DNA from: a virus
Strand: one strand, 5' to 3'
DNA length: 64,000 nt
IMG/VR virus record: IMGVR_UViG_3300032675_000001
Location: 296,684-360,683 of that record
In this document: one piece after another, positions 22,075-35,816 of the stretch
Position numbering within the stretch: the first letter of the stretch is position 1
Layout of the letters: each line of letters starts with the position of its first letter
The notes under the pieces: generated by a model
The model's database searches: none
Seen by the model: only the letters and a program-made list of their open reading frames with translations
What the model was told of the DNA's origin: nothing
Program-made: the position numbers and the translations under genes

Positions 22075-22761
22075 TCAATCCATTTGATTAATTAGATTTT
22101 CAAGATCATTTAAAAGATTAATAGGTAAGGTTTCGGTGTATCCATCTGAACACTCATTCTTGGTAACTGCGCCATTGACATATCCAAAATGAGATTTGAT
22201 CTTAGATTCCCACTCAAGTCCCTTTTCTCCAGTATCAAAATCTTTTATATAATGTACAGTATATGCCCCATTCTTGGTCCGGTGACTGGCTAGTCTCCTT
22301 TTTAGATTAGTTGTCACCCCAAATTTAATAAAAGTATCAAATAGCAATACATAACCAGTTGATGGTTTAGTTGGATTAAATCCCTGTCCATTGCAGTTTG
22401 GGCATGGTGATTTTCTTTTTATACGATTTGGAACCACTGACCATGTATATCCACATGTAAGGTGGGTATGTGATATTTTTGAGTGTGTGCCATTATATTC
22501 TTCATTGACGATAAAATCTGGATTATTTAAACTCAACTGTTCTACATATTCATCATGTGTTAATTTTTGATTTCTAGCACACTTTGGACAGCCTCTTCCT
22601 ATTTTAATTTTTTCTGGTTTGGCCATCCACGTATGTCCACATCTGAGACTGGTGTATGATATTTTTGTAGTATTATTGATGTAGTTTTCGTTAACTATCA
22701 ATTCAGGTCTGTGTATACGTAAAAATTCTACGTATTCTTCATGTGTCATTTTTTTTCTCAT
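22075..22761 (-). CDS. GIY-YIG-type endonuclease with two zinc-ribbon modules
   Basis: Two copies of a 55-60 residue module (HRPELIVNENYIN...TSLRCGHTW...GCPKC and NPDFIVNEEYNG...LTCGYTW...CPNC) with Cys pairs that should bind zinc, followed by a compact GIY-YIG-like domain from about residue 135 (GYVLLFDTFIKFGVTTNLKR, then EWESKIKSHFG). Such free-standing proteins are common mobile genes in large phages. It is a tandem paralogue of the next gene, which has only one module. Confidence 0.75.
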   Translation of the reverse strand: MRKKMTHEEYVEFLRIHRPELIVNENYINNTTKISYTSLRCGHTWMAKPEKIKIGRGCPKCARNQKLTHDEYVEQLSLNNPDFIVNEEYNGTHSKISHTHLTCGYTWSVVPNRIKRKSPCPNCNGQGFNPTKPSTGYVLLFDTFIKFGVTTNLKRRLASHRTKNGAYTVHYIKDFDTGEKGLEWESKIKSHFGYVNGAVTKNECSDGYTETLPINLLNDLENLINQMD

Positions 22762-22804: not shown

Positions 22805-23293
22805 TCAACATAGTTGTTCAAGTTCTTCAAGTAGGAAAAGGGGTAGTGTCTCGGTATATCCACAGGGGCACATCTCTTTGGAAACTGCACCTTGGGGATA
22901 TCCAAAATGATTTTTTATTCGTTTTTCCCACTCAATAGCATCTTTTCCGTTAGTGAATGTTTTTGTATAATGCACCGTGTGTTTTCCGTTCTTTGCTCGG
23001 TGATCTTTTAGTCTGTTCTTTAATATGTTAGTAATACCATATTTTAAGAATCCATCAAAAATCAGAATATAAACGGTTACTGGCTTAGTGGGATCAAACT
23101 TGCATATACGACACATGGGACAGCCTCTCCCAGATTTAATATTGGTTGGTCGCGCCAGCCATTCATGTCCACAAGTAAGGTGGGTGTGTGATATTTTTGT
23201 TGCGGCATTGATATATCTACCGTTAACTACAAACTCTGGTCTATGTGTGCGGAGATATGCTTCGTATTCTTCCTGAGTTACCGTTTTTGTCAT
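22805..23293 (-). CDS. GIY-YIG-type endonuclease with one zinc-ribbon module
   Basis: 162 aa paralogue of the preceding protein: one module (HRPEFVVNGRYIN...LTCGHEWLARP...GCPMC) and the same C-terminal nuclease domain (TVYILIFDGFLKYGITNILK, then EWEKRIKNHFGYPQGAV). Probably arose by tandem duplication with later loss or gain of one module. Confidence 0.75.
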   Translation of the reverse strand: MTKTVTQEEYEAYLRTHRPEFVVNGRYINAATKISHTHLTCGHEWLARPTNIKSGRGCPMCRICKFDPTKPVTVYILIFDGFLKYGITNILKNRLKDHRAKNGKHTVHYTKTFTNGKDAIEWEKRIKNHFGYPQGAVSKEMCPCGYTETLPLFLLEELEQLC

Positions 23294-23340: not shown

Positions 23341-23928
23341 TCACTGGAAAATGTGATGATTCTTTTCGCCGTAAATCTTGATGTATTTACCAGCTAACAT
23401 ATCAGCCATAGCCTCAATAGGACTACCGGGATAGCTGGCACCGGGCTTGATCATACCGATTTCATCTTGACGAACATGGACCAGTTCATGAAAAACTGTG
23501 CGTAGTATGTCAACAAGATTTCTGTCCTTGGCATAAACCCATACTGAACCTTGTCCCTGAACATGCCCACCAGTGTGATGATTGTCTTGGGCATCTTGTG
23601 TATCATAGCTAAGTTGAATTTTTGGTAGATGTTGAATGTGAAGTCTTCTGCCAGCCCATTCAGCAAACTTTCTGACTTCTTCTCCAAGATCATCAGTTGG
23701 GTTTCCGCTAGTTTCGTCTAAATCTCTAACGTCTTCAATCCAATCGGCGGGAACTTTATGGTAAGTTCTTTTAAAAATATCATGAAGTGCTTCATCGGTA
23801 AGTCTATGCTTTTTTGCAATGCTGCGAATCAATCTATCAATGGTATCATAATCATGCTTCTCCAAAGAAGGTAGTTTCTTGGCTAGTTCATGTGCAGCCG
23901 CTGCATGGATGATGTCTTCTGTTAACAT
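23341..23928 (-). CDS. HELVH zinc metalloprotease-like protein, 195 aa
   Basis: The zinc-binding HExxH motif is seen as FHELVHVRQDEIG (about residue 155), followed by IEAMADMLAGKY, where a downstream Glu could be the third ligand. Start at ATG 23928 rather than the longer frame, because GATAAATAC lies four bases before it. Context: late gene beside the outer-membrane barrel and curli block. Could process virion or envelope proteins; substrate unknown. Confidence 0.65.
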   Translation of the reverse strand: MLTEDIIHAAAAHELAKKLPSLEKHDYDTIDRLIRSIAKKHRLTDEALHDIFKRTYHKVPADWIEDVRDLDETSGNPTDDLGEEVRKFAEWAGRRLHIQHLPKIQLSYDTQDAQDNHHTGGHVQGQGSVWVYAKDRNLVDILRTVFHELVHVRQDEIGMIKPGASYPGSPIEAMADMLAGKYIKIYGEKNHHIFQ

Positions 23929-23932
23929 GAAT

Positions 23933-23941
23933 GTATTTATC
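23933..23941 (-). promoter_or_regulatory. Late promoter abutting the metalloprotease start
   Basis: GATAAATAC with only ATTC between it and the ATG; no ribosome site fits in between. Confidence 0.6.
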
Positions 23942-23945
23942 CTAC

Positions 23946-23980
23946 TAAAAACAATAACGGCGGAGAAATTAATCCCCGCC
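23946..23980 (-). terminator. Terminator after the outer-membrane barrel gene
   Basis: GC-rich 8-bp stem (arms 23973-23980 and 23959-23966) with a short loop and a T-rich tail on the minus strand. Confidence 0.75.
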
Positions 23981-24004
23981 GCCATCATTTGACTGTGAAC
24001 GCTA

Positions 24005-24481
24005 TTAGAAGCGAACAGAAGTCGTAGCAACTACGCCGTTGTTCTTGACACCGCCAAGATCAGTATGAGCATACTGAACACCAACTGAGAATGGTCCTAC
24101 AACATTCAAATCAACGCCCCCAGTTGCACGAAGCCCCTGAAGATTGTGTGCATGAAGATCGCGTAGGTTATCATAACCAAGACCAGCATATACAAGAGTA
24201 TAACCAGTCACTTCATAACCAAGACGAGCGCCAACATTGACATCGCGACGATCAAACACGTTGTCAAGGCCAGTTTCCAAACCAGCAGTGATCGGACCAA
24301 CAACCTTGGTGTCGTAACCGAGTTCAACACCATAAGTGAAGTCACGATTTGACGGAATGTTTGAGATGTCCTGATAACCAACTTCACCAGTTACGCGAGG
24401 ACCAACAAAGCTATCTGCCATTGCTGGAGCGGCAGTTGCGGCGGATACAGCCAATAGTGCTGCTGTGATTAACTTCTTCAT
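24005..24481 (-). CDS. Outer-membrane beta-barrel protein, 158 aa
   Basis: A signal peptide (MKKLITAALLAVSAATAAPAMA) precedes about eight alternating amphipathic strands (GEVGYQDI, TYGVELGYDT, VNVGARLGYEV, VYAGLGYDNL, VGVQYAHTD) and a C-terminal Phe, the usual signal for barrel assembly. Likely an eight-stranded OmpA/OmpX-like barrel placed in the host outer membrane. It has its own host-type promoter and terminator, so it is expressed apart from the curli block beside it. A role in surface masking or superinfection exclusion is inference. Confidence 0.75.
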   Translation of the reverse strand: MKKLITAALLAVSAATAAPAMADSFVGPRVTGEVGYQDISNIPSNRDFTYGVELGYDTKVVGPITAGLETGLDNVFDRRDVNVGARLGYEVTGYTLVYAGLGYDNLRDLHAHNLQGLRATGGVDLNVVGPFSVGVQYAHTDLGGVKNNGVVATTSVRF

Positions 24482-24573: not shown

Positions 24574-26631
24574 TTATTTTGATGTTGCCCTGTACACCCC
24601 ATCCCAATCTCTAGGTTTTGGTGGATTCTGTTGTATCTCTTTGATCCTATCTTGCATCATTAAGTAATAAGATTTCAGTACGCCGTTCCAGTTATTTTCC
24701 ATAGCCTGTGCAAAACCCAATGCTCTGTTCCAAGCACCCATTCTATATGCATCCATGAATCGTTGATGTGCTAGTTGCGCTTTTGCGTCCTTGTGCTCCA
24801 ACACCGTATAGATTCTGGAAGGTTCTGTTTTGCCCTTGACTGCGATAAGATCAAGTTCAACGACCTGATACTTGTCTTTCACGTATTCTGCGGTTTTGGG
24901 ACCAATAATGATTTTAACCCCGTAAGGCTTGCTTTGACCTTCCAGCCTACTTGCGAGATTAACGCCATCACCCAGACAAGTATAATCAAACCGCTGGTCG
25001 CTGCCCATATTGCCGACAACAACAGTATCAGTATTAATACCGAGACCCATTCCAAAAGCTGGTACGCCTTCTTTTTTGACTTCATTGTTAAATTCCTCCA
25101 ATGCTTTCAACATCTGAAACGCTGTTTTTACTGCATCCAATGCGTGTTTCTCATTGTTTACAGGTGCGTTCCAGAATGCCATTTGAGCATCACCTATATA
25201 CTTATCAAGCGTACCTTTGTTCTCAAGAATTGCTTTGGTCATCGCTGTCATGTAGCGATTCATAATCTTGGTCAATCCTTGAACGTCCTTGCCATAATGT
25301 TCTGAGATTGTAGTGAAACCACGAACATCCGTGAACATGATGGACAGTTCTTGCTCAGTGCCTCCTAGCTGTAATAGTTCTGGTTGACGCTGTAGTTGTG
25401 CAACAAGATCAGGACTCAAATAAGTTCCAAACTGCTTCTTGATCTGCTGCTTTTGTAGAAACTCATTGATGAATTTTACACTGTAAACATGCAAATAAAT
25501 AATGAGAGCAGACAAGAAGTTGAATGAAATATCAAACAATATCTTATTATGACTATATAGATATACAGGAGTATAAGCATATCCGATCAGTAATATTCCA
25601 ATCCAAACAATGGAATATCTTAGATTAGACAAGCCTATAACTGCTAGTGAAAGAAGCACAAATGCCAGAAGATCAACCAGCCCAACCCAATTCGGAATTG
25701 ACACAGAATCCTGATTTATCAGAGTCTGAAGAATGCTGGCCTGAACCTGATGGGGCATTTTGGCACCAGCCGGAGTCGCTACTGGGTTTGCGATCCCGCT
25801 CGCAGTCACACCGAGTAGAACGATCTTTCCATCGAGACGAGGAATATTCTCGCCTACTTCAAACGATGAGAATTCGGAATTCGGATTAATAAACACACGA
25901 CCATATTCATCTGTAGGAATTTTACCAAACTGTGGAACACGAACAGCCTCAACACCAGTCTCATTTATTTTCGCTTGATAGCTTGGATCACCAGCAGCGA
26001 CACGCAACAGTTCTAAGGCGAACGAAGGGTAGTATTCGCCATTTGAAGTCCCTAATAAAGGCATTCGGCGCACAACCCCATCCGTCTCGGGAAGAGTTGT
26101 TGTTATGCCGACACCTACAGCGGATTGTTGAAGAACTGGAATGTTATCAAGAACACAAGGATAGTTCGGAAGAAACTGAGTTGGTTTCCCGTCACCGATT
26201 ACAGCAACACCTGTGCGGCGAGTCTGACGATTATCCCTAGTGCAATCGGTTGAAAGTGTTTGGCTAAGCACTACAGGGTGATTTGCTAACGCATTTGCAA
26301 AGGCATCATCACCATTGAATCTATCTTTTTCCGGATAGAGAATGGTGCTTCCAACAAGACCAGCATGACCATTATCGTAAATGTCATTGATAATCTTGGC
26401 ATAAGTGTCTCTAGGGAATGGATATTGTCCGTATTTTTCTATTGCTTTCTCGCCAATATTTGCAATGACGATTTGATCAGAATGTACAGGCTTGCCTAGC
26501 ATAAGATAATCATAAAACTTAAGCTTCATCGCATCAACTAGATACGGATTGGAAAGCTTGACGATAAGAAGTAATGTTAAAGTGAAAAGAGCCATCCAAG
26601 GACTCAATAGGATTTTTCGTAGTTTTTTCAT
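24574..26631 (-). CDS. CHASE2-domain adenylate/guanylate cyclase, 685 aa
   Basis: A transmembrane receptor cyclase. After one N-terminal membrane helix (about residues 11-30) comes a periplasmic CHASE2 sensor (to about 300: FYDYLMLGKPVHSDQIVI, then FPRDTYAKII, and the end motif KIVLLGVTASG). Three membrane helices follow (about 315-385), then a class III cyclase domain (about 425-600). Catalytic residues are present: both metal Asp (MFTDVRGFT and YIGDAQMAF), the base-binding Lys (LDKYIGD), and YTCLGDGVNLASRLE with the transition-state Asn and Arg. Lys in the base pocket favours ATP. The frame is complete. It is the last gene of the curli block. A membrane cyclase is very unusual in a phage. 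Confidence 0.9.
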   Translation of the reverse strand: MKKLRKILLSPWMALFTLTLLLIVKLSNPYLVDAMKLKFYDYLMLGKPVHSDQIVIANIGEKAIEKYGQYPFPRDTYAKIINDIYDNGHAGLVGSTILYPEKDRFNGDDAFANALANHPVVLSQTLSTDCTRDNRQTRRTGVAVIGDGKPTQFLPNYPCVLDNIPVLQQSAVGVGITTTLPETDGVVRRMPLLGTSNGEYYPSFALELLRVAAGDPSYQAKINETGVEAVRVPQFGKIPTDEYGRVFINPNSEFSSFEVGENIPRLDGKIVLLGVTASGIANPVATPAGAKMPHQVQASILQTLINQDSVSIPNWVGLVDLLAFVLLSLAVIGLSNLRYSIVWIGILLIGYAYTPVYLYSHNKILFDISFNFLSALIIYLHVYSVKFINEFLQKQQIKKQFGTYLSPDLVAQLQRQPELLQLGGTEQELSIMFTDVRGFTTISEHYGKDVQGLTKIMNRYMTAMTKAILENKGTLDKYIGDAQMAFWNAPVNNEKHALDAVKTAFQMLKALEEFNNEVKKEGVPAFGMGLGINTDTVVVGNMGSDQRFDYTCLGDGVNLASRLEGQSKPYGVKIIIGPKTAEYVKDKYQVVELDLIAVKGKTEPSRIYTVLEHKDAKAQLAHQRFMDAYRMGAWNRALGFAQAMENNWNGVLKSYYLMMQDRIKEIQQNPPKPRDWDGVYRATSK

Positions 26632-26641
26632 GGCTCTATCC

Positions 26642-27835
26642 TTAATGTTTTACATATGAATATCCAGTGCAGGTTCCAGTAGTACAAGTAATGCTCATTG
26701 ATGCGCTATCAGTAGTAGTAGGATTATCCTGAACGACAGTTACTCCGATATTTGAACTATTTAGCGTAAGAGAAAACATTTTCTGTGCAGTGCCAGCTTG
26801 TGTGGCACTTACCGTATTTCCACTAGTTGGTATATTAAGTTCTAAGAAGTGATTGCCCGTTCCAGTCTGTGATGTGGTGATGTTATTACCTGTTCCTGTA
26901 ACGTTCTGAAATAGATTTTGTCCACCTGATTGAGTGTTGTTCAATATGTTTGAGTTGCCGTTAATGATAGCCTGCTCATAGTTGGAGTTTCCTGCCTGAT
27001 TTACTGTCATATTATTTCCAGTTCCAACAATATTAGCTTCAACTAGGTTATGATATCCATTCAATGTTTGACCACCTTGTGTCACGTTCAAGCTATTTGA
27101 TGCACCGTTAATAACCAATGCTGTGCCATTAGGACCTCTTACAGCATTGTAATCACCTGTTTGAGTAACAGTTACACTAGTGTTATCTCCACCGTATTGA
27201 TTGATGTAGACAGTGTTATAACCTATAGTTGAGGTTTGGTTTATATAGTTCTGCTCTATTGAACTGATAACAGCAGGAGGATAAGTGGGTGCAGGAGGTG
27301 CCGCAGATTGTCCTGCTGCTAATGGAGTAGTTGAGCCACTGCCTGCAAAAGTATTTGTTTGCGCAACAGTTGGGTTTAGAGTACCAGTAAAGCTGAATCC
27401 ATTTGAGTTAGGGAATCCATAGTCAGTGCTGAAGACTGTGCCATTTAGATTGGCATTGGTGAAGAAAAAGAAATGATGTCCTAGACTGTCTGTTCCCTCA
27501 ACATCCAGTTTACCCGGACCAAGATCAGCCGCAACGGAACCATTGCTATTATACACAATCATTTCCCAGGGATAGCTAGGATTGCCACTAGCGATAAATC
27601 CGATATATTGCGTTGACGATAAGTGATAAGGTGATCCTGTGTTCCAAGAAGTGCCTATGCCACTTAGGCTATAGATTTGACAAGTTGTGGTATACAAGCA
27701 AGCACTGACATTCCATTGCGTGTCACTGAACTGTGCAGCACCGAACTCCAGATTGGAAAAAGAGGTTGCCATAGCAGGAACAGTGAATAACCTTAAACAT
27801 AGAATGAAAAGTAGAATCTTATTAAAGGTTTTCAT
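26642..27835 (-). CDS. Secreted curlin-like repeat protein, 397 aa
   Basis: Signal peptide ending near PAMA. Residues about 25-190 form a non-repeat domain; then come repeats of roughly 20-24 residues rich in Asn, Gln, Gly and Thr, for example NTSVTVTQTGDYNAV, NSLNVTQGGQ, NNMTVNQAGNSN, NNITTSQTGTGNH. The spaced S/T-x-x-Q-x-G-x-x-N pattern is the amyloid repeat of CsgA/CsgB curlins. Likely substrate of the CsgG pore encoded two genes upstream. Its start overlaps the FecR gene stop. Confidence 0.75.
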   Translation of the reverse strand: MKTFNKILLFILCLRLFTVPAMATSFSNLEFGAAQFSDTQWNVSACLYTTTCQIYSLSGIGTSWNTGSPYHLSSTQYIGFIASGNPSYPWEMIVYNSNGSVAADLGPGKLDVEGTDSLGHHFFFFTNANLNGTVFSTDYGFPNSNGFSFTGTLNPTVAQTNTFAGSGSTTPLAAGQSAAPPAPTYPPAVISSIEQNYINQTSTIGYNTVYINQYGGDNTSVTVTQTGDYNAVRGPNGTALVINGASNSLNVTQGGQTLNGYHNLVEANIVGTGNNMTVNQAGNSNYEQAIINGNSNILNNTQSGGQNLFQNVTGTGNNITTSQTGTGNHFLELNIPTSGNTVSATQAGTAQKMFSLTLNSSNIGVTVVQDNPTTTDSASMSITCTTGTCTGYSYVKH

Positions 27836-28974
27836 TTGTTAGGTGCTCCATTCTGGACTATTGTTATTGTTCCTTGTGGTCTACCATCACCTTGATTAGT
27901 CCATTTTTGATTCATAAAGTTGTATGAATCTACCAGTCCATTTTGAGAAACCACTACCTGTACTTGTGTATTTAGCGGTAACCAAACAGTAGCAGCCTGC
28001 TCTTTGTCTTGAGAAAGTTCTGAATAAGCCCATCCTATTTGAACAAGTTTCTTGTTCAATACAGGAGAAACATTGGTGTGTATTGTTTGTTTTGGAAGAG
28101 TTGCATTGTTTTCCAAATAAACCTGTTCCAATTGATCTGGAGTAGCGGGCTTGGCAGCAATCAATACTGCAACTTCTTCAAATGGATCACCACCTGAGTC
28201 TGGGTCTTGGTTTGCATCAGCAGCCGCCTGTGAAGGGTTCAACGAAAGCTTCAATGCGTTTTTTGATATCTTGTTAAGACTATCACCAGAATCGGTAGTG
28301 GGTGCTGAAATCTGTAGTGTATTGTTTACCTGCTTCATTGTCATATTTACTTTGACCGGAGGAGCAGGTGGAGTGAAACTGTTTTCCACCATAGTTGCTT
28401 GGAAAGGTCTGGACAGAGTTACTACTCCAGCAGCAGTTAGAACCTCAATAGACCCGGTTGGGCATTCATCTGTTATCTTTGTGGGGTCCTTGTCATCATA
28501 ACAGCTAGGTAGTAGAATGACAGTTGTTTTGCCAGTTTCATCAACTGACATCAAAAAGTCTGTGCCACGAACACCAATCGTTGCAGTTGGAGTATGTATA
28601 TTAACACCACCGGGATTGCCATGTGCGATTTTACCAGATGCATATCGCACTGTACCTAATGCAACTTTAAGACCAAGCTTGCCTTTGTTTGAGTTTCCAC
28701 CATCATATACGAAGTCATCTATTACAAGCTTACTGTTTTCGGTGATATTAACCGTAGTGCTATCAATAAACGTGATCTTGAACTTACCTTGACTGTTGGT
28801 GGTGATCGTATCCATCTTTTCAATCCCGCTACCTTTAGCAGCAGGATGTATCGTATTTGATCTTTTGATTTGACCTCCGCCTCTAAAATCTGTTACCGAC
28901 CCGATTGATGCCATCGCAGGGGTCGATAATAGAAGTAATAGATTAATGGCCAGTCTTAATATTGAACGTGCCAT
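27832..28974 (-). CDS. Secreted FecR-domain protein, 380 aa
   Basis: Signal peptide ending STPAMA. The FecR-type domain spans about residues 25-170: IGSVTDFRGGGQIKR, GKFKITFIDSTTVNI, LKVALGTVRYASGK and TPTATIGVRGTDF, the last being the hallmark of exported FecR domains. The C-terminal part is Pro- and Lys-rich with a final strand segment. In bacteria such proteins often neighbour CHASE2 proteins and surface polymers; a periplasmic sensor or scaffold role is likely. Confidence 0.8.
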   Translation of the reverse strand: MARSILRLAINLLLLLSTPAMASIGSVTDFRGGGQIKRSNTIHPAAKGSGIEKMDTITTNSQGKFKITFIDSTTVNITENSKLVIDDFVYDGGNSNKGKLGLKVALGTVRYASGKIAHGNPGGVNIHTPTATIGVRGTDFLMSVDETGKTTVILLPSCYDDKDPTKITDECPTGSIEVLTAAGVVTLSRPFQATMVENSFTPPAPPVKVNMTMKQVNNTLQISAPTTDSGDSLNKISKNALKLSLNPSQAAADANQDPDSGGDPFEEVAVLIAAKPATPDQLEQVYLENNATLPKQTIHTNVSPVLNKKLVQIGWAYSELSQDKEQAATVWLPLNTQVQVVVSQNGLVDSYNFMNQKWTNQGDGRPQGTITIVQNGAPNK

Positions 28975-29749
28975 TGTTACCGGTACTCGTTATGTTGATT
29001 ACTGTTTCAGAAGCACCATACTGTTGAGTAGTAAGAGTGTTACCTGTTCCAGTAAAGCTGGCATATAGAGAGTGACCATATGTTCCACCGGCATCAGTTT
29101 GTGTCACGTTAGTAGTATTGTTGCTACCAGTGAACAATAATGTTTGTGACGAGTTAGGCGAGTTATCAGTTACAGTAAATGCGTTATTGTTGCCATTGGT
29201 GTTGATTGTTTGCGTAATATTTGCAGCAGACCCATGAAAATTCAATGAGTTGTTGTTACCATCAAATACAACATTAAGATTCAACTTATTACAGTTTGAA
29301 TCGCCCTGCTGTGTGCCACATGCAATGACAGCAGTATTATTATTACCAATCTGTTGAATAGTAGCAGTTGCGCCACTACCTGTTCCAGTAGAACCTACAA
29401 TACCCATTAGTAATGAGTTTGAATTGCCAGTTTGAATAACTGTAACAGTTTGATTGTCACCAGAAAGATAAATTGGATTTACCAAAGTACCTGTAATGTT
29501 AGATACACCTGTTTGTTGGATATTTACATTTACGTTATTACCTGACTGATCAATGTATACTTTATTTGTTGTTGCTACTGTGCCTGCTTCTGTTGCATTG
29601 GGTGAAGTTGCTACGATTGCAGGAGGATTTGGTGCAGTAGGAAGTACCGCAGTTGCTGGAGTGCCAGCATCAACTGATGCTGTTTGTGCAAACGCAGCAC
29701 TAGATACTAGCAACGAACCAAGAATTAATGCATATTTTATTATTTTCAT
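28943..29749 (-). CDS. Secreted curlin-like repeat protein, 268 aa
   Basis: Signal peptide ending SSAAFA. An Ala/Pro/Thr-rich linker is followed by repeats such as NNVNVNIQQTGVSN, NQTVTVIQTGNSN, ATATIQQIGNNN, NNTTNVTQTDAGG and NTLTTQQYGASE. The Q-x-G-x-x-N curlin pattern is clear. Directly follows csgG. By analogy with E. coli one of the two curlin-like proteins could nucleate (CsgB role) and the other polymerise (CsgA role); which is which cannot be told. Confidence 0.78.
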   Translation of the reverse strand: MKIIKYALILGSLLVSSAAFAQTASVDAGTPATAVLPTAPNPPAIVATSPNATEAGTVATTNKVYIDQSGNNVNVNIQQTGVSNITGTLVNPIYLSGDNQTVTVIQTGNSNSLLMGIVGSTGTGSGATATIQQIGNNNTAVIACGTQQGDSNCNKLNLNVVFDGNNNSLNFHGSAANITQTINTNGNNNAFTVTDNSPNSSQTLLFTGSNNTTNVTQTDAGGTYGHSLYASFTGTGNTLTTQQYGASETVINITSTGNNGTFNIKTGH

Positions 29750-29760
29750 CTTTGTAATCC

Positions 29761-30588
29761 TTACTTTGTTGTAGTTGTTTGTGCGGTTGCCTTAAAGTGC
29801 CAAAGCCCTTTCTTTTCGCCGCTCTTTATTAGTTCTGCTACACCGAGTTCAATGGCTGCTCTTATAGCATAACTTCCAGCTTCATTAGTCGTTTGTTGTC
29901 CATCAAGTTCAAATGCCTGTGTTCCCAAATCAAAGAGTTTAAACACTGTTATACCCTCTGAGGTAGACAAAACATTTTTATTGACAGTGACACTATCTAA
30001 TACTTCGCCGGTTTGTGTAGATACGAGTCGCATATTGATTACGACCATATCTTCACTGTATTGAGTATTCGGACCTATGCCTAGATAACGAACCCCATTA
30101 CCTCCTGTTTTAGTATCACTGTTATAATCAATGATACCACCTTCAATGATCAAGCCCGCTACCGTTAAAGGTGGCAGCGGTGTTGCTTTATCACCATATT
30201 CTTGTTCACGCATCTGACGAATAAGTTGACGTTCCTTTATGAGACTGTCAATACCCACACGTTCAACTGGTCTAAACCATTTGCCATTGTCAACATCTGA
30301 TAGAGTTTTAATAAGATATGCGTCAGCACCCTGAGTTACTGCGGTACTGAACGTGCTTAGAGTTGATGATGGCTTACGCTGTCCAGTCTTGTCAGTAAAT
30401 GCATATACTGCAACTGGAATCGGTGGACCTTCAGGATCAGGGATGCCCTTGAATACCTTTTCATTGGCAAACTTAGACACTACAGGCTTTGATCTAAGCA
30501 TTTCCGTGTCTTTGTTCAGTCTAGGGTGAATGCCTCCGATACAACCGGACAAAAGAAGCATTAATGGCAAAATCAATAGTTTTTTCAT
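29761..30588 (-). CDS. csgG: Curli secretion pore lipoprotein CsgG
   Basis: Lipoprotein signal with lipobox LLLSGC at residues 11-16. The alignment to E. coli CsgG holds by eye along the chain: VAVYAFTDKTGQRKP (VSVYNIQDETGQFKP), FSTAVTQGADAYLIKTL, WFRPVERVGIDSLIKERQLIR, LTVAGLIIEGGIIDYNSD, KTGGNGVRYLGIGPNTQY, MRLVSTQTGEVLDSV and ETGV-like IELGVAELI near the end. Length 275 aa against 277. It would form the outer-membrane export channel for the curlin-like proteins. Confidence 0.93.
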   Translation of the reverse strand: MKKLLILPLMLLLSGCIGGIHPRLNKDTEMLRSKPVVSKFANEKVFKGIPDPEGPPIPVAVYAFTDKTGQRKPSSTLSTFSTAVTQGADAYLIKTLSDVDNGKWFRPVERVGIDSLIKERQLIRQMREQEYGDKATPLPPLTVAGLIIEGGIIDYNSDTKTGGNGVRYLGIGPNTQYSEDMVVINMRLVSTQTGEVLDSVTVNKNVLSTSEGITVFKLFDLGTQAFELDGQQTTNEAGSYAIRAAIELGVAELIKSGEKKGLWHFKATAQTTTTK

Positions 30589-30599
30589 GTCAAGGCTCC

Positions 30600-31055
30600 T
30601 TAAAACGCAAATGTCGCAATAGGAACATTGACCACTGTTTGATTGCCTGAACTGTCAACTACCGTGAGTTGCACATTGGTGCCTGTTTTTAGGTAACTAA
30701 TGGTGTTTCCATCTAGATTAAATGTTCCTGCGTTGGATGATCCTCCGGCTTGGAACAAGTTGTTTGACAACTGTGTTGCAAGCTGTGCATACACTTGTGA
30801 AGTAAACAGAGAAATAAACTTAGCTAGAGGAGTGTTTGATGCAGCAGCGGCGGCGGCTGCTTGAGCAGATGCTAATGCATTTGCATTTGAGGCAGCATTA
30901 GAAGACTCTAACGACTGCACCGAAAGTACATGGTTAGACCAGTTGATGCCATTAAATGAAGGGTCTTTAAACTGCTGAATCAGTGGATCAGCATGTGCCG
31001 TTCCTGCAATACTAAGTGCTGTGATTAGAGAAAGTGCTTTTAATATTTTTCTCAT
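30600..31055 (-). CDS. csgF: Curli assembly factor CsgF
   Basis: Signal peptide, then IQQFKDPSFNGINWSNHVLS, matching the CsgF N-terminal plug (FQFRNPNFGG...), which binds inside the CsgG channel. A low-complexity Ala/Ser/Asn stretch follows, then the C-terminal strands NVQLTVVDSSGNQTVVNVP, matching LQLNVTDRKTGQTSTIQV. Length 151 aa against 138. It sits directly upstream of csgG with the same order as expected for a functional pair. No CsgE is seen. Confidence 0.88.
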   Translation of the reverse strand: MRKILKALSLITALSIAGTAHADPLIQQFKDPSFNGINWSNHVLSVQSLESSNAASNANALASAQAAAAAAASNTPLAKFISLFTSQVYAQLATQLSNNLFQAGGSSNAGTFNLDGNTISYLKTGTNVQLTVVDSSGNQTVVNVPIATFAF

Positions 31056-31072: not shown

Positions 31073-31402
31073 TTAACTACTTCCGCCAGAAGCCTCTTGA
31101 TCTGCTTCTTTGTGATGTACACGAGGTTGATTGATAATCTTTTCGGCCTCAACACGCTCATGTTCAATGGTCTTTCCGCGCAAGTGTAATACCGTATTAA
31201 CTTTTTGATTAAGTCTGATCAAGTCATTGTCTAGCATTCTGATACGATCAATCAGCGCGATCAGAACAGTGTTTGCTTCGCTGAGAACCGGCTTGACTTC
31301 TTTTGTCGCCCATTCCCAAACGTAGAACACGAAATATCCCATGCCGCCAGCAGCAATGATGGGGAATCCATACTTGTTTACTAGTTCTGCTATTTCACCC
31401 AT
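31073..31402 (-). CDS. Small holin-like membrane protein, 109 aa
   Basis: One hydrophobic helix (about residues 11-29: FPIIAAGGMGYFVFYVW) is followed by an amphipathic coiled region (TVLIALIDRIRMLDNDLIRLNQKV). A paralogue of the next gene upstream, with the same GFPI-A-A-G-x-GYFVF core. Could be a holin-type or membrane-scaffold protein of the curli block. TAATG-type coupling links the pair. Confidence 0.6.
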   Translation of the reverse strand: MGEIAELVNKYGFPIIAAGGMGYFVFYVWEWATKEVKPVLSEANTVLIALIDRIRMLDNDLIRLNQKVNTVLHLRGKTIEHERVEAEKIINQPRVHHKEADQEASGGSS

Positions 31403-31686
31403 CAGTCGCGTCTCGCATCTGTCTTGCCATCAGCACGAGCGATTCGTTCAACATCTGGTCTTAAACCCAACGCATTTGAAACAACAGTGTCAATGCGAAT
31501 GACATCGTGATTCATAGTCTTAACACGATTGTCTAGTGCGGTGATGATACCAGCCATACCTTTTACGCTACCCGTGACACCAGCAAGAATAAACTTTAGG
31601 GTGAGGAACACAAAGTAACCAGCCCCTAATGCAGCCGCAATAGGAAATCCAACATCACCAATAACTTTAAAGATATCTGTACCCAT
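31402..31686 (-). CDS. Small holin-like membrane protein, 94 aa
   Basis: First gene of the curli block. Hydrophobic helix VGFPIAAALGAGYFVFLTLKFI then a helical tail with ALDNRVKTMNHDVIRIDTVV. Clearly related to the 109-aa neighbour. Function unproven. Confidence 0.6.
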   Translation of the reverse strand: MGTDIFKVIGDVGFPIAAALGAGYFVFLTLKFILAGVTGSVKGMAGIITALDNRVKTMNHDVIRIDTVVSNALGLRPDVERIARADGKTDARRD

Positions 31687-31702: not shown

Positions 31703-31731
31703 AAAACCCCAGTGTTTTGTTTACACTGAGG
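31703..31731 (-). terminator. Terminator upstream of the curli block
   Basis: Minus-strand stem CCTCAGTGT/ACACTGGGG (8 of 9 paired) with an AAACAAA loop and a TTTT tail. It ends the 100-aa gene's transcript, so the curli block needs its own promoter. ACTAAATAATAG just upstream of the stem is a weak late-type match. Confidence 0.75.
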
Positions 31732-31769
31732 TGTTACTATTATTTAGTCATTTTGGGTATTTTTAAGTA

Positions 31770-32133: not shown

Positions 32134-33582
32134 TTATTTTTGAAAAAGTGAAAATAAATTCCCAGTGACATAGTTCTTATCTTGTCCAAACATACTATGT
32201 TGTAAATGCTTGATAATATCTGGGGTAAGGTGTCTTGCTCTCATTCCCCCACGAGGAAAAAGATGCACTTCTACTGGTTCATCGCCTTCAACCTTTTGAA
32301 TAGCCATCATGCGATTGCGCCCTTCATGACCACTGACTCTGGCATCTTTACTGAAGTCACCGTCTTCCCATTCTCGTGGAATATCTATGGTCAAAAAGGG
32401 TGAACCCAATGCTCCACCTTGTTCAATATGACCTGCAATGTGATCAACGCTTGTGGGATTGTTTAATCTGTGAGCAAGCTTTAAAAACATACTCGGTTTC
32501 ATCAAAACACGCAATCCCATGTAATCCACGTTAGCATTATATGGAACAGAACCAAGCCCGTTTTCGTTGTCTACTTTGTATTCATCAAGTTCTGATTCTT
32601 TTATGTCTTTTGGCATTGCATAAAAGATATGCTTACCTACAGCGGCAAGTTTTTTAGTTCCTTTTGCCCAATATGGATGAATATCTTTGGTGTGATAAAA
32701 GACTGCACCGTGTGTTGGGTCAGGAGCATGACCAGACATGATCTTCTTGGCAAGCTCATAGCTCTTGGCCCATAGCTTGTAATCAAGACCTTTGCCAGTG
32801 TTTTCAAGCTTCTTTAACCATGTATTGAAATCTTGACCACCGGGTGCTTTTCTGGACTTGATGATCTTATCAAGATGTTCCATTTCTTGTGCATATTTGT
32901 AGTTTGGATCGTTGTGGTTCCAGCAACTAAACTGACTTGGTTTTGTGGCAACACCAACAATACCTTGACCAAAACGTCTTGCGTGTGCCTTATCATTGGC
33001 GCGATTCTTAATGACATTACCGATTGCTAGCATACCATTTGCGCCTTGATCCCTTGCTTCTCCCCACATTGTGTGGGCAAGAATCTTAGTGGGGTCTTGG
33101 TGTACTGGTTGTGTTGCTGCTGGGAGATCAAAACGAACAACAGGATCAAACTGCTGCTGTTTATTGTGCATAGCCAATCCGCCTGCCGCCAAAGCCGCTG
33201 CGCCGCCTGCGGCTAGTGCACCCTTCTTAGCCCAATCGGGAAAAGCTTCATCAAGCGATTCATTCATACCTAAAGGAAGATTGGCAACATGCTGCAATGG
33301 AAGATTGACTAGTTTCAATGCACCACTCGCAAACTGTCTCCAGTAACCGGTATTATGAATATGCTGCATCATGTAATACAGATATCTTGCATCAAGAACA
33401 TCAGTAGCCGTTACCTTGATACCGATATTTTCTGGTGAATATTCCTTGGTTGGTGTGCCTACCGATTTGTCACTACCTTTGCGCTGAAGCCAGAAATCAG
33501 CATCAGGAAAGTTTGTCTTCACTGTTGCTAAATCTTTGAGCCTTACGCCAGCGGATTCTGTTATGAACTCTTTCGCTCTCAT
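32134..33582 (-). CDS. Capsid-targeted SleB-type cell-wall hydrolase fusion, 482 aa
   Basis: The ATG overlaps the previous stop (TAATG). The first residues, MRAKEFITESAG, fit a T4 capsid-targeting peptide with a gp21-like cleavage site (I-T-E before S-A). Next comes a domain with DADFWLQRKGSDKSVG and TDVLDARYLYYMM, resembling type I specificity-subunit-like phage domains, then an Ala-rich hydrophobic helix (about 130-150). The SleB/cell-wall hydrolase core is TMWGEARDQGANGMLAIGNVIKNRA (split here around residue 185), with the catalytic Glu of GEA. The C-terminal domain (from about 340) has GSPFLTIDIP and GHEGRNRMMAI, common in phage structural polyproteins. Likely injected with DNA. Confidence 0.7.
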   Translation of the reverse strand: MRAKEFITESAGVRLKDLATVKTNFPDADFWLQRKGSDKSVGTPTKEYSPENIGIKVTATDVLDARYLYYMMQHIHNTGYWRQFASGALKLVNLPLQHVANLPLGMNESLDEAFPDWAKKGALAAGGAAALAAGGLAMHNKQQQFDPVVRFDLPAATQPVHQDPTKILAHTMWGEARDQGANGMLAIGNVIKNRANDKAHARRFGQGIVGVATKPSQFSCWNHNDPNYKYAQEMEHLDKIIKSRKAPGGQDFNTWLKKLENTGKGLDYKLWAKSYELAKKIMSGHAPDPTHGAVFYHTKDIHPYWAKGTKKLAAVGKHIFYAMPKDIKESELDEYKVDNENGLGSVPYNANVDYMGLRVLMKPSMFLKLAHRLNNPTSVDHIAGHIEQGGALGSPFLTIDIPREWEDGDFSKDARVSGHEGRNRMMAIQKVEGDEPVEVHLFPRGGMRARHLTPDIIKHLQHSMFGQDKNYVTGNLFSLFQK

Positions 33583-35816
33583 TATCCAATCCGCTCTGCT
33601 CGTATATGTCGAGAATTCCAAGTTGGGTTTTCTCGTCTAGCGATATTTATTGCTTCTTCCGCACTTGAAGCAGTCACATTGGATATACCACTGGCGTCTC
33701 CTCTATGGACTCTCCATAACGCTGGTGCTGTTTCTGTATTTTCAGATGATGAAGTATTACCATTTTCTGCTTCTTCCCAGCGAGCATTAAATCGCATGAT
33801 CCAATTAATCTGAGCATCAGTTAGGTTTTCATAGTCTTGATCATGTGGGTCAACGTGAGGAAGACCTTGTTGATCGCACCATAGTTCATATTCACGAGTT
33901 AGTTGATCAATAGCTTGCGCTCTTGGTCCATCCTGTTGAGGAGCATATGCATTGACATCATCTGAAGGAGTAGGAGGTGTTTGGCGGCGACCGGGTTCGG
34001 CAACGTCAACAGAAATATTCTGTAGTGGCATAGTTCTCCACACGTGATTGCGAGCCGCCAGCCTATTATATGCCACTTCTGAATTGGGACCAGATGCGTA
34101 TGCAGGAGCAACTGAACCATCACGTGTCATAAATCTATATGTTGTTTCACCCTCGGCAGGCTCATCAAGAATGCCCTGTGGATCATTTTCACCAGATAGT
34201 ATCTTAGCTAGTTCATCGTTCGTTTTACGATTGTACTTCTTCTTTGCAAGAGCACCGGCAAGTTCTTCCTTATTAAGTTCACCGGCCATATATCTAGCAA
34301 ATAAACTCATTTCTGCCTTAGGGTCTTTTGGTTTAAGTAACTTATATAATCCCTTTAAGTATTCTTTACGATACTTCTGTGGATCACAAGCTGCATCAAG
34401 TGCTACGACAAATCTCAACACAGTATTTTCAATCTTACTAAAGTTAGAGTTTAACCAATCATTACCGGGACCACGAAACTCAACCCAGTTTTCTTTAGTA
34501 TTAATACTGGTGAACTTTCTGGTTGACCCATTATGAATAATCTTACTTGCTATTTCTTCCATATTACTGCGTAATTTTTCAAATAATCTTTCTGTTTCCT
34601 GTGGATTATCTTTTGCTTTATTTTTAATAATATCAAGTGCAGACTCACAGTAAGAGTTAGCTATACGACCAAACTGGTTAAGAACATACTGATCTCCGGA
34701 AAGAATAGCAAGCTTTACATAATCCAAGTTACTTTTACTATAGTTAGGAACACTTACGTTCATGTGTAAACCGCATGAACTATTAGTGTATGCACCAACG
34801 TCATCTGCCCATTCTTTAATCTTGGAGATATCATCAAACATTTCATCTACTGGCAGTGGAGGACTAATAAACTCTAATCCTGCCTCATCTGAACCATATG
34901 CTCTTAAACTAGAATCTGGTTCAATAGTATACCCATCAGATGTTCTGCGAGCACCGTGATATGATGAACTCCAGTTTACGCTGCGCCCGATGGCGTCTTC
35001 AAATCTGCTAGCGACTTCTTCAATGGATTCGCCGCCATTGTTGTTATATACTGGTTCAGGATCACTCCAGCGGGTCCATGCTAAATCATTATTACGGTTC
35101 ATTCGGTGATTATATACGTCATCCATATCATTGATACCGATGCTCTCTAGGAACTCTTCTTGATCAACCTCATCACGATCAAATCCGTATATGTATGGGC
35201 TATTTTCATCTGGGTCGGCTTCATCGTCTTCATCATAACTATAATAGTTTGGAATCATGTCGCCGTCTTTAAATGACTCGTATGCTTGATCGTAATAGTT
35301 GTAGCCAGCAGCATTGCCGGGTCTTTTCCATTCCTCATCGGCTACTTCTTCGTAATCTTCTTTAGTGGGAATACGATCACCCAATAGGTCTTCTGGTTTA
35401 TCTAGATAATCAGCAATATCTGATGGATCAGCATTTTTCTTAATCCAGTTTAAAAGATATTCCTTGCCTCTTTTTTCCCAATCTTTTTTGACATATGTTT
35501 CTAAATATTCATCAAACTTTTCTTCTAATACCCGTCTTAATTCGGCAATAGTGGATCGGGTATTGTGATCACGTTCATCAAAGAAATCAACAATGTCATC
35601 AATGCTTCTAGCAGGCTCATTTTCATCGTAACGTTCTGGGTCTTGGTAGTCTGGTTCATCATCCTCGGTGTTAACGTCAGGAACGATCATTTCAAACTCC
35701 ATACCAACCTTAGCATCAATCTGATTAGCCAGTTTTTTAAGGTTAGTAGGACTCATCTCCACTTCAAGGAGTTGTTGTTGTGCTTCGTATAGGTCAAGGA
35801 AATGTTTTGCTCTCAT
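33582..35816 (-). CDS. Capsid-targeted amidoligase-family protein A, 744 aa
   Basis: Start MRAKHFLDLYEAQQQLLEVE is nearly the same as in the next gene and fits a prohead-targeting peptide. The amidoligase (COOH-NH2 ligase, glutamine-synthetase-like) core is marked by KVGMEFEMIVPDV (metal Glu, about residue 40), GLEFISPPLP, CGLHMNVSVPNY and WVEFRGPGNDW with the phosphate-binding Arg. A long acidic insertion lies between the first motifs. The C-terminal 40 residues hold one Y/W-R-V...SAEEA-IA repeat. It may ligate amino groups to carboxylates on peptides or proteins; substrate unknown. Confidence 0.75.
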   Translation of the reverse strand: MRAKHFLDLYEAQQQLLEVEMSPTNLKKLANQIDAKVGMEFEMIVPDVNTEDDEPDYQDPERYDENEPARSIDDIVDFFDERDHNTRSTIAELRRVLEEKFDEYLETYVKKDWEKRGKEYLLNWIKKNADPSDIADYLDKPEDLLGDRIPTKEDYEEVADEEWKRPGNAAGYNYYDQAYESFKDGDMIPNYYSYDEDDEADPDENSPYIYGFDRDEVDQEEFLESIGINDMDDVYNHRMNRNNDLAWTRWSDPEPVYNNNGGESIEEVASRFEDAIGRSVNWSSSYHGARRTSDGYTIEPDSSLRAYGSDEAGLEFISPPLPVDEMFDDISKIKEWADDVGAYTNSSCGLHMNVSVPNYSKSNLDYVKLAILSGDQYVLNQFGRIANSYCESALDIIKNKAKDNPQETERLFEKLRSNMEEIASKIIHNGSTRKFTSINTKENWVEFRGPGNDWLNSNFSKIENTVLRFVVALDAACDPQKYRKEYLKGLYKLLKPKDPKAEMSLFARYMAGELNKEELAGALAKKKYNRKTNDELAKILSGENDPQGILDEPAEGETTYRFMTRDGSVAPAYASGPNSEVAYNRLAARNHVWRTMPLQNISVDVAEPGRRQTPPTPSDDVNAYAPQQDGPRAQAIDQLTREYELWCDQQGLPHVDPHDQDYENLTDAQINWIMRFNARWEEAENGNTSSSENTETAPALWRVHRGDASGISNVTASSAEEAINIARRENPTWNSRHIRAERIG

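What the first reader, a model, noticed from the sequence alone, without database searches (positions are those of the whole stretch)
24574..26631. Receptor-type adenylate cyclase in a phage
The cyclase domain keeps both metal aspartates, the base-binding Lys and the Asn/Arg transition-state residues, and the CHASE2 sensor with its membrane helices is complete. A phage-coded transmembrane cyclase could raise cAMP or cGMP in the host on a periplasmic cue. If the partner FecR or the curlin-like proteins are what it senses, the phage carries a whole signalling loop.
Basis: partly seen in the sequence, partly recalled or inferred. Interest (0 to 1): 0.88.

Follow-up and report, generated by a model that had tools for sequence, protein, structure and literature searches.

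The report
Phage membrane adenylate cyclase with curli
A giant virus of bacteria carries an intact gene for a membrane sensor that should make the signal molecule cyclic AMP, inside a set of genes for exporting sticky amyloid (curli) fibres; similar sets are known from ocean phages, and here it is shown that the set has been reshuffled between phages and once captured by bacteria.

Summary
Observation confirmed. ORF 24574-26631 (-), 685 aa, is an intact CHASE2 receptor plus class III cyclase with all six catalytic/substrate residues (D435, K477, D481, T551, N558, R562). It is a phage gene: the record is a 360,683-bp virus contig whose DNA polymerase is nearest to jumbo phages, and 591 viral stretches plus two cultured phages (HTVC008M, Melnitz) encode relatives. 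The residues match adenylyl, not guanylyl, cyclases, so cAMP is the predicted product. It ends a curli (type VIII secretion) operon CsgF-CsgG-curlin-FecR-curlin-cyclase; FecR lies upstream in 66/66 testable viral loci. This module, including FecR and adenylate cyclase, was published for pelagiphages in 2022, so it is a new member of a known kind. New here: the CHASE2 identity; strong FecR-CHASE2 linkage in bacteria (34 of 46 genes, 0.8 expected); the same cyclase paired with two very different curli/FecR modules; and capture of the cassette by two Caulobacteraceae, nested inside the phage tree. "Whole signalling loop" is not supported: no cyclic-nucleotide-binding protein was found in 15 phage records, so any receptor is presumably the host's. 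FecR as trigger is plausible but unproven; one published bacterial test speaks against it.

The parts
24574..26631 (-). CHASE2-class III adenylate cyclase, 685 aa
   Evidence: ORF; Pfam; catalytic residues; model pLDDT 85.6
26560..26616 (-). N-terminal transmembrane helix (aa 6-24)
   Evidence: hydropathy, helix 2-27 in the model
25645..26574 (-). CHASE2 domain, predicted periplasmic (aa 20-329)
   Evidence: Pfam PF05226 3.6e-38; separate model pLDDT 84.6
25486..25686 (-). transmembrane helix cluster (aa 316-382) between sensor and cyclase
   Evidence: hydropathy; helices 316-334, 340-362, 369-401 in the model
24823..25353 (-). cyclase catalytic domain (aa 427-603), adenylyl-type residues K477/T551
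   Evidence: Pfam PF00211; alignment to CyaB, CyaC and Cya2; Z 23.2 to CyaB 3r5g
26642..27835 (-). second curlin-repeat protein, signal peptide by eye
   Evidence: weak CsgB match; the gene at the same place in Melnitz has Curlin_rpt
27832..28974 (-). FecR-domain periplasmic protein
   Evidence: Pfam PF04773 1.6e-12; 66/66 loci
28943..29749 (-). first curlin-repeat protein
   Evidence: CsgA-like match; Melnitz homologue has Curlin_rpt; 49/50 loci
29761..30588 (-). CsgG outer-membrane curli pore (lipoprotein)
   Evidence: Pfam PF03783 1.2e-50; 50/50 loci
30600..31055 (-). CsgF
   Evidence: Pfam PF10614 7.3e-17; 50/50 loci
31073..31402 (-). small single-TM plus coiled-coil protein (phrog_18771), unknown function
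   Evidence: TM-coil gene(s) in 44/50 loci
31402..31686 (-). second, similar small TM protein, probable first gene of the operon
   Evidence: tandem pair in related loci
31706..31732 (-). terminator-like hairpin closing the preceding transcription unit
   Evidence: 10-pair stem followed by a T-rich tail
24005..24481 (-). OmpA-like beta-barrel protein downstream; optional member (12/75 related loci)
   Evidence: Pfam PF13505 2.4e-11

Best explanation
The gene encodes an inner-membrane adenylate cyclase whose CHASE2 domain sits in the periplasm and whose CyaB/CyaC-type catalytic domain sits in the cytosol and turns ATP into cAMP. It is the signalling output of a phage-borne curli (type VIII secretion) operon. 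During infection CsgG/CsgF form an outer-membrane pore and curlin-repeat proteins are exported. The conserved FecR domain, in the periplasm, reports the state of this export or of the envelope to CHASE2 and changes cyclase activity. The cAMP acts on a host receptor of the CRP type, because the phage carries none that could be found, and shifts the host towards a surface-attached, non-motile or otherwise altered physiology that suits the phage. Shown by sequence: domain make-up, intact active site, conserved operon, FecR linkage, purifying selection, no cyclic-nucleotide-binding domain in the records searched. Inferred: membrane topology, cAMP as product, FecR as trigger, host CRP as target, benefit to the phage.
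For: Domains and residues. K477/T551 are shared with the adenylyl cyclases CyaB and CyaC, while the guanylyl cyclase Cya2 has E and G there. Closest solved folds are CyaB (Z 23.2) and CyaC (Z 23.0). FecR 66/66, CsgG 50/50, CsgF 50/50, first curlin 49/50 in testable viral loci. In 19 mostly alphaproteobacterial genomes 34 of 46 CHASE2 genes have FecR within 10 kb, 0.81 expected, 28 upstream on the same strand. Between divergent phage modules the FecR domain (aa 51-200) stays 38-65% identical while the C-terminal part falls to 9-21%, as expected if the FecR domain faces a constant partner. Precedent: S. meliloti CHASE2 cyclases respond to a protein signal through the outer-membrane barrel NsrA and act through the CRP-type regulator Clr (PMC13001267; PMC7529298), and a CyaD1 construct without CHASE2 makes cAMP constitutively (PMC5498481). 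In four Rickettsiales/alphaproteobacterial loci the CHASE2 cyclase lies near cNMP-binding proteins, and L127 also holds a FecR/RTX type I secretion set.
Against: No activity has been measured. The FecR protein Smc02177, encoded near a CHASE2 cyclase gene, was not required for signal perception in S. meliloti (PMC5498481). The cyclase, CHASE2 domain included, shows no sequence difference tracking the curli/FecR module type beyond the first five residues, so its sensor may not read module-specific proteins. No phage cAMP receptor and no enriched CRP-like boxes. The host of the window phage is unknown.
Confidence: 0.5

Rival explanations
1. The cyclase is active and serves the phage, but CHASE2 does not read FecR or curlins. 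It reads an envelope or external cue (for instance through an outer-membrane barrel, as with NsrA in S. meliloti) and the curli genes are co-inherited for another reason.
For: The same cyclase lineage (about 70-77% identity) sits under two modules whose CsgG is about 42% and FecR about 30% identical, without matching differences in the cyclase. S. meliloti CHASE2 cyclases need NsrA but not the FecR protein Smc02177. An OmpA-like barrel follows the cyclase in this window.
Against: FecR is never missing in 66 testable viral loci and is linked to CHASE2 in bacteria without curli; the FecR domain itself is well conserved across modules. The barrel is present in only 12/75 loci.
Confidence: 0.3
2. 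The whole operon is a lysis device: CsgG/CsgF act as a gated pore (as proposed for Melnitz) and the cyclase only tunes its timing.
For: Proposed from structure and gene order in PMC9004378. Small TM-coil proteins lead the operon in 44/50 loci, and a cell-wall hydrolase lies nearby at 32134-33621.
Against: Curlin-repeat genes and FecR are kept as constantly as the pore, which a bare pore would not need. The window has separate endolysin-like genes. Two Caulobacteraceae keep the cassette with cyclase dN/dS 0.08, unlikely for a lysis device.
Confidence: 0.12
3. The enzyme makes another cyclic nucleotide (cGMP, or cCMP/cUMP as in Pycsar) and interferes with defence signalling.
For: Ten PADLOC PycC models match, best E=3.6e-24.
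Against: The best matches cover the common cyclase domain. Lys/Thr at the base-reading sites match adenylyl cyclases, unlike the guanylyl cyclase Cya2. The CHASE2-FecR-curli context is not a Pycsar locus.
Confidence: 0.05
4. A host fragment wrongly joined to a phage contig, or a decaying cargo gene.
For: None found.
Against: Same cassette in viral contigs and two cultured phages; dN/dS 0.06-0.13; phage replication genes on both sides; cassette GC 41.2% equals the window's 41.0%.
Confidence: 0.01

Closest known systems
Pelagiphage T8SS (curli) module with FecR and adenylate cyclase (PMC9599517; HTVC008M; Melnitz; PMC7029224)
   Same: Same genes in the same order, CsgF-CsgG-curlin-FecR-curlin-cyclase; cyclase 38% identical over 88-97% of its length.
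   Different: Here on a 360-kb contig whose DNA polymerase is nearest to Sinorhizobium phage Phosso and Agrobacterium phage Atu_ph07, not a pelagiphage; no histidine kinase domain was seen in the operon genes scanned; the papers read do not name CHASE2 (not among the terms searched).
Sinorhizobium CHASE2 adenylate cyclases CyaD1, CyaD2, CyaK with NsrA and Clr (PMC13001267, PMC7529298, PMC5498481)
   Same: CHASE2 plus class III cyclase in the inner membrane, signal crossing the outer membrane, a FecR gene nearby.
   Different: Bacterial, not in a curli operon as far as these papers tell, own CRP-type receptor Clr; the FecR gene there was not needed for perception.
Pseudomonas aeruginosa CyaB (3r5g) and Spirulina CyaC (1wc0-1wc6) catalytic domains
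   Same: Class III adenylyl cyclase fold (Z 23.2 and 23.0), same K/T substrate residues.
   Different: About 34-36% identity; the sensor part of the phage protein is CHASE2.
Burkholderia BiofilmReg operon, FecR/LysM protein with CHASE2 histidine kinase (PMC5192318)
   Same: FecR-domain periplasmic protein directly before a CHASE2 receptor, connected with biofilm formation.
   Different: Output is a histidine kinase and response regulator, not a cyclase; not phage.

Membership tests
CHASE2 receptor proteins | CHASE2 domain (PF05226) over cut-off | tested here: met
   132 bits, cut-off 26.3
CHASE2 receptor proteins | one TM helix before and several after the sensor | tested here: met
   hydropathy and model helices; prediction only
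CHASE2 receptor proteins | sensor regulates the output domain | not testable with these tools
   needs an assay; shown for CyaD1 without CHASE2 in PMC5498481
Class III adenylate cyclase, CyaB/CyaC type | two metal Asp, Asn and Arg transition-state residues | tested here: met
   D435, D481, N558, R562
Class III adenylate cyclase, CyaB/CyaC type | Lys and Thr base-specifying residues | tested here: met
   K477, T551; Cya2 (guanylyl) has E and G
Class III adenylate cyclase, CyaB/CyaC type | makes cAMP from ATP | not testable with these tools
   biochemical assay needed
Phage T8SS module of PMC9599517 | CsgF, CsgG, curlin repeat, FecR, adenylate cyclase in conserved order | tested here: met
   curlin repeats in the window itself only weakly matched
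Phage T8SS module of PMC9599517 | histidine kinase in front of csgF (podovirus version) | tested here: inconclusive
Pycsar PycC | PycC profile match | tested here: inconclusive
   E=3.6e-24 but essentially over the general cyclase domain
Pycsar PycC | adjacent Pycsar effector (PycTM or PycTIR) | not tested
   neighbours are FecR, curlin, OMP; no dedicated scan of neighbours
Bacterial canonical curli operon (csgBAC-DEFG) | CsgE, CsgC, CsgD present | not tested
   neighbours scanned with Pfam gave only CsgG and CsgF; no whole-contig search for CsgC/D/E

The most novel reading that the evidence does not exclude
FecR-CHASE2-adenylate cyclase is a general surveillance unit that reports the state of surface-fibre or adhesin export (type I secretion in bacteria, curli in phages) as cAMP. 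Phages exchange it as a module across curli types, and bacteria can capture the phage version, so a phage signalling-plus-amyloid operon has become a cellular trait in Caulobacteraceae.
Probability: 0.25. Interest if true: 0.8.

Novelty: new member of a known kind. Interest (0 to 1): 0.5.

Why it matters
If the cyclase works as predicted, phages alter the host's cAMP level with an enzyme of their own, coupled to an amyloid secretion system that their known hosts (SAR11, OM43) lack. The FecR-CHASE2 linkage gives a concrete partner to test for CHASE2, a sensor domain for which no solved relative was found here. The swapping of curli/FecR modules under one cyclase lineage, and the cassette's move into Caulobacteraceae, make the open question of what phage curli do testable in a bacterium that carries it as its own gene set.

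Tried and rejected
Host-contig artefact: rejected. Guanylyl cyclase: disfavoured by K477/T551. Pycsar: superfamily-level match only. Phage-encoded CRP: PF00027 and PF13545 absent from the 360-kb contig and PF00027 absent from 14 other phage records; most of these records may be fragments. CRP-like boxes: 36 found against 49 by chance. T4 late promoter TATAAATA: one match in the window, none near the operon. A single-sequence scan of bacterial genomes found no relatives; the profile scan did. Fold search with the CHASE2 domain alone gave no match of Foldseek E<=0.001 or Z>=5 and no sequence match in the PDB at E<=0.1, so its fold gives no ligand hint; this does not show the fold is new. First reading of the Caulobacteraceae contig as the cellular donor of the cassette: rejected after the tree placed it inside the phages. 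The Acinetobacter phage MD-2021a hits are bacterial-looking contigs, not used.

Full report
What is there. The ORF at 24574-26631 (minus strand) encodes 685 aa. Pfam finds CHASE2 (aa 20-329, E=3.6e-38) and the class III cyclase domain (aa 427-603, E=1.1e-21). The AlphaFold2 model has mean pLDDT 85.6, with helices after the sensor at 316-334, 340-362 and 369-401 leading into the cyclase; hydropathy shows one membrane segment at the N-terminus and a cluster at 316-382. That arrangement puts CHASE2 in the periplasm and the cyclase in the cytosol (inferred). D435, K477, D481 and R562 are invariant in 40 phage relatives that are less than 90% identical to each other; N558 is kept in 39 and T551 in 38. 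dN/dS between relatives is 0.06-0.13.

Which product. In the solved adenylyl cyclases CyaB and CyaC the two base-reading residues are Lys and Thr; in the guanylyl cyclase Cya2 they are Glu and Gly. The phage protein has Lys and Thr. Its closest folds are CyaB (Z 23.2, 189 residues, 2.0 A) and CyaC (Z 23.0). The prediction is cAMP.

Is it phage. The window is the last 64 kb of a 360,683-bp virus record. T4-like DNA polymerase, clamp loader, PhoH, exonuclease and endolysin families lie on both sides. The polymerase is nearest to Sinorhizobium phage Phosso (46%) and Agrobacterium phage Atu_ph07 (45%), phages of 469-490 kb. Of 599 pattern matches in viral contigs, 591 encode relatives. Among annotated phages the same cassette occurs in HTVC008M and the Melnitz phages.

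The operon. Reading 31686 down to 24574: two small TM-coil proteins, CsgF, CsgG, curlin-repeat protein, FecR, second curlin-repeat protein, cyclase, behind a terminator-like hairpin at 31706-31732. In the 80 best viral loci FecR precedes the cyclase in 66/66 that reach far enough, CsgG and CsgF in 50/50, the first curlin in 49/50, the TM-coil genes in 44/50; the OmpA-like barrel follows in only 12/75. These loci were chosen by cyclase similarity, so the numbers describe this cyclase lineage, not all phage curli.

FecR and CHASE2 in bacteria. In 19 genomes holding close bacterial relatives there are 46 CHASE2 genes; 34 have a FecR domain within 10 kb, where 0.81 is expected from FecR counts and genome sizes; 28 are upstream on the same strand. 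Many of these genomes are rhizobial relatives, so the cases are not all independent. CsgG is found in only 3 of the 19, so the FecR-CHASE2 link does not depend on curli. Sets read in detail (L087, L127) include a FecR-domain adhesin-like protein and type I secretion genes, and in four Rickettsiales/alphaproteobacterial loci also cNMP-binding proteins, in L127 one fused to HlyD-like domains.

Module swapping. Two curli/FecR module types occur in the viral loci. Between them CsgG is about 42% and FecR about 30% identical, while their cyclases remain about 70-77% identical, and no stretch of the cyclase, CHASE2 included, separates the two types apart from the first five residues. Distances of CsgG and FecR correlate at 0.98 with each other but only 0.3-0.6 with the cyclase protein's domains. 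So the cyclase has been exchanged between modules. This argues against a sensor tailored to one FecR. However, the FecR domain itself (aa 51-200) stays 38-65% identical across types while the C-terminal part falls to 9-21%, so a constant FecR-CHASE2 contact remains possible.

A captured cassette. A lake Caulobacteraceae MAG (L085) and a second genome of the same family (L185) carry the complete cassette on contigs with ordinary bacterial genes. Their cyclases are 93% identical to each other (dN/dS 0.08) and nest inside the phage tree: holding the phages together as one clade is rejected (p-AU 0.003), and the CsgF+CsgG+FecR tree agrees (quick method, long branches present). The nearest viral contigs carry phage ribonucleotide reductase and dCMP deaminase families. 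Cassette GC is 51% against 57% around it. The simplest reading is transfer from phage to bacterium; unsampled bacterial donors at several points cannot be excluded. Misbinning of a contig is possible for each genome; the bacterial genes on the same contigs speak against it being pure phage sequence.

What is known. PMC9599517 (2022) described T8SS modules with FecR and adenylate cyclase in pelagiphages of two families, with probable alphaproteobacterial origin. PMC7029224 and PMC9004378 discuss CsgG/CsgF as uptake pore, sibling capture or lysis regulator. CHASE2 does not occur in the text of PMC9599517 or PMC9004378. Work in S. meliloti shows that CHASE2 cyclases raise cAMP in response to a protein signal through the outer-membrane barrel NsrA and act through Clr, and that a CHASE2-less CyaD1 is constitutive, but also that the FecR protein Smc02177 is not needed for perception.

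Verdict. The protein is a new member of a known phage module rather than a first. The most likely mechanism is cAMP output from a periplasmic sensor tied to curli/FecR, acting on a host receptor. The claim of a complete phage-encoded loop is not supported: no cyclic-nucleotide-binding domain was found in the 360-kb contig or 14 other phage records.

Noticed in passing
L085:5963-12058; L185:9955-16012: Complete phage-type curli/FecR/CHASE2-cyclase cassette in two Caulobacteraceae genomes, nested inside the phage tree.
   Followed up: yes
L085:4776-5609: A calcineurin-like phosphoesterase, matching cyclic-nucleotide phosphodiesterase models SpdA and CpdA below their cut-offs, directly precedes the captured cassette.
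   Followed up: partly
L127:1500-6028: CHASE2 cyclase flanked by two cNMP-binding proteins, one also holding HlyD domains, in a Rickettsiales genome: possibly cAMP-controlled type I secretion.
   Followed up: partly
31073-31686: Tandem small single-TM, coiled-coil proteins (phrog_18771) lead the operon in 44/50 loci; in L056 and L061 they lie downstream on the other strand. Holin-like in look, function unknown.
   Followed up: partly
CHASE2 domain, 25645-26574: No solved structure was found to resemble CHASE2 by sequence or by fold of a model with pLDDT 84.6.
   Followed up: partly
CAKLQF020000009.1 and OR851715.1 (phages collection): The first, labelled Acinetobacter phage, carries isc and mfd genes and looks bacterial; the second, a 1,499-bp Salmonella phage record holding csgG, may be host DNA.
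   Followed up: no
22075-22761 and 22805-23293: Two similar proteins; the first has a treble-clef zinc-finger region (DUF4379) and a weak GIY-YIG-like end. They lie downstream of the operon; perhaps homing endonucleases.
   Followed up: no
23341-24030: Protein with an HELVH motif like a zinc protease, no Pfam hit, near the cyclase in several related loci.
   Followed up: no
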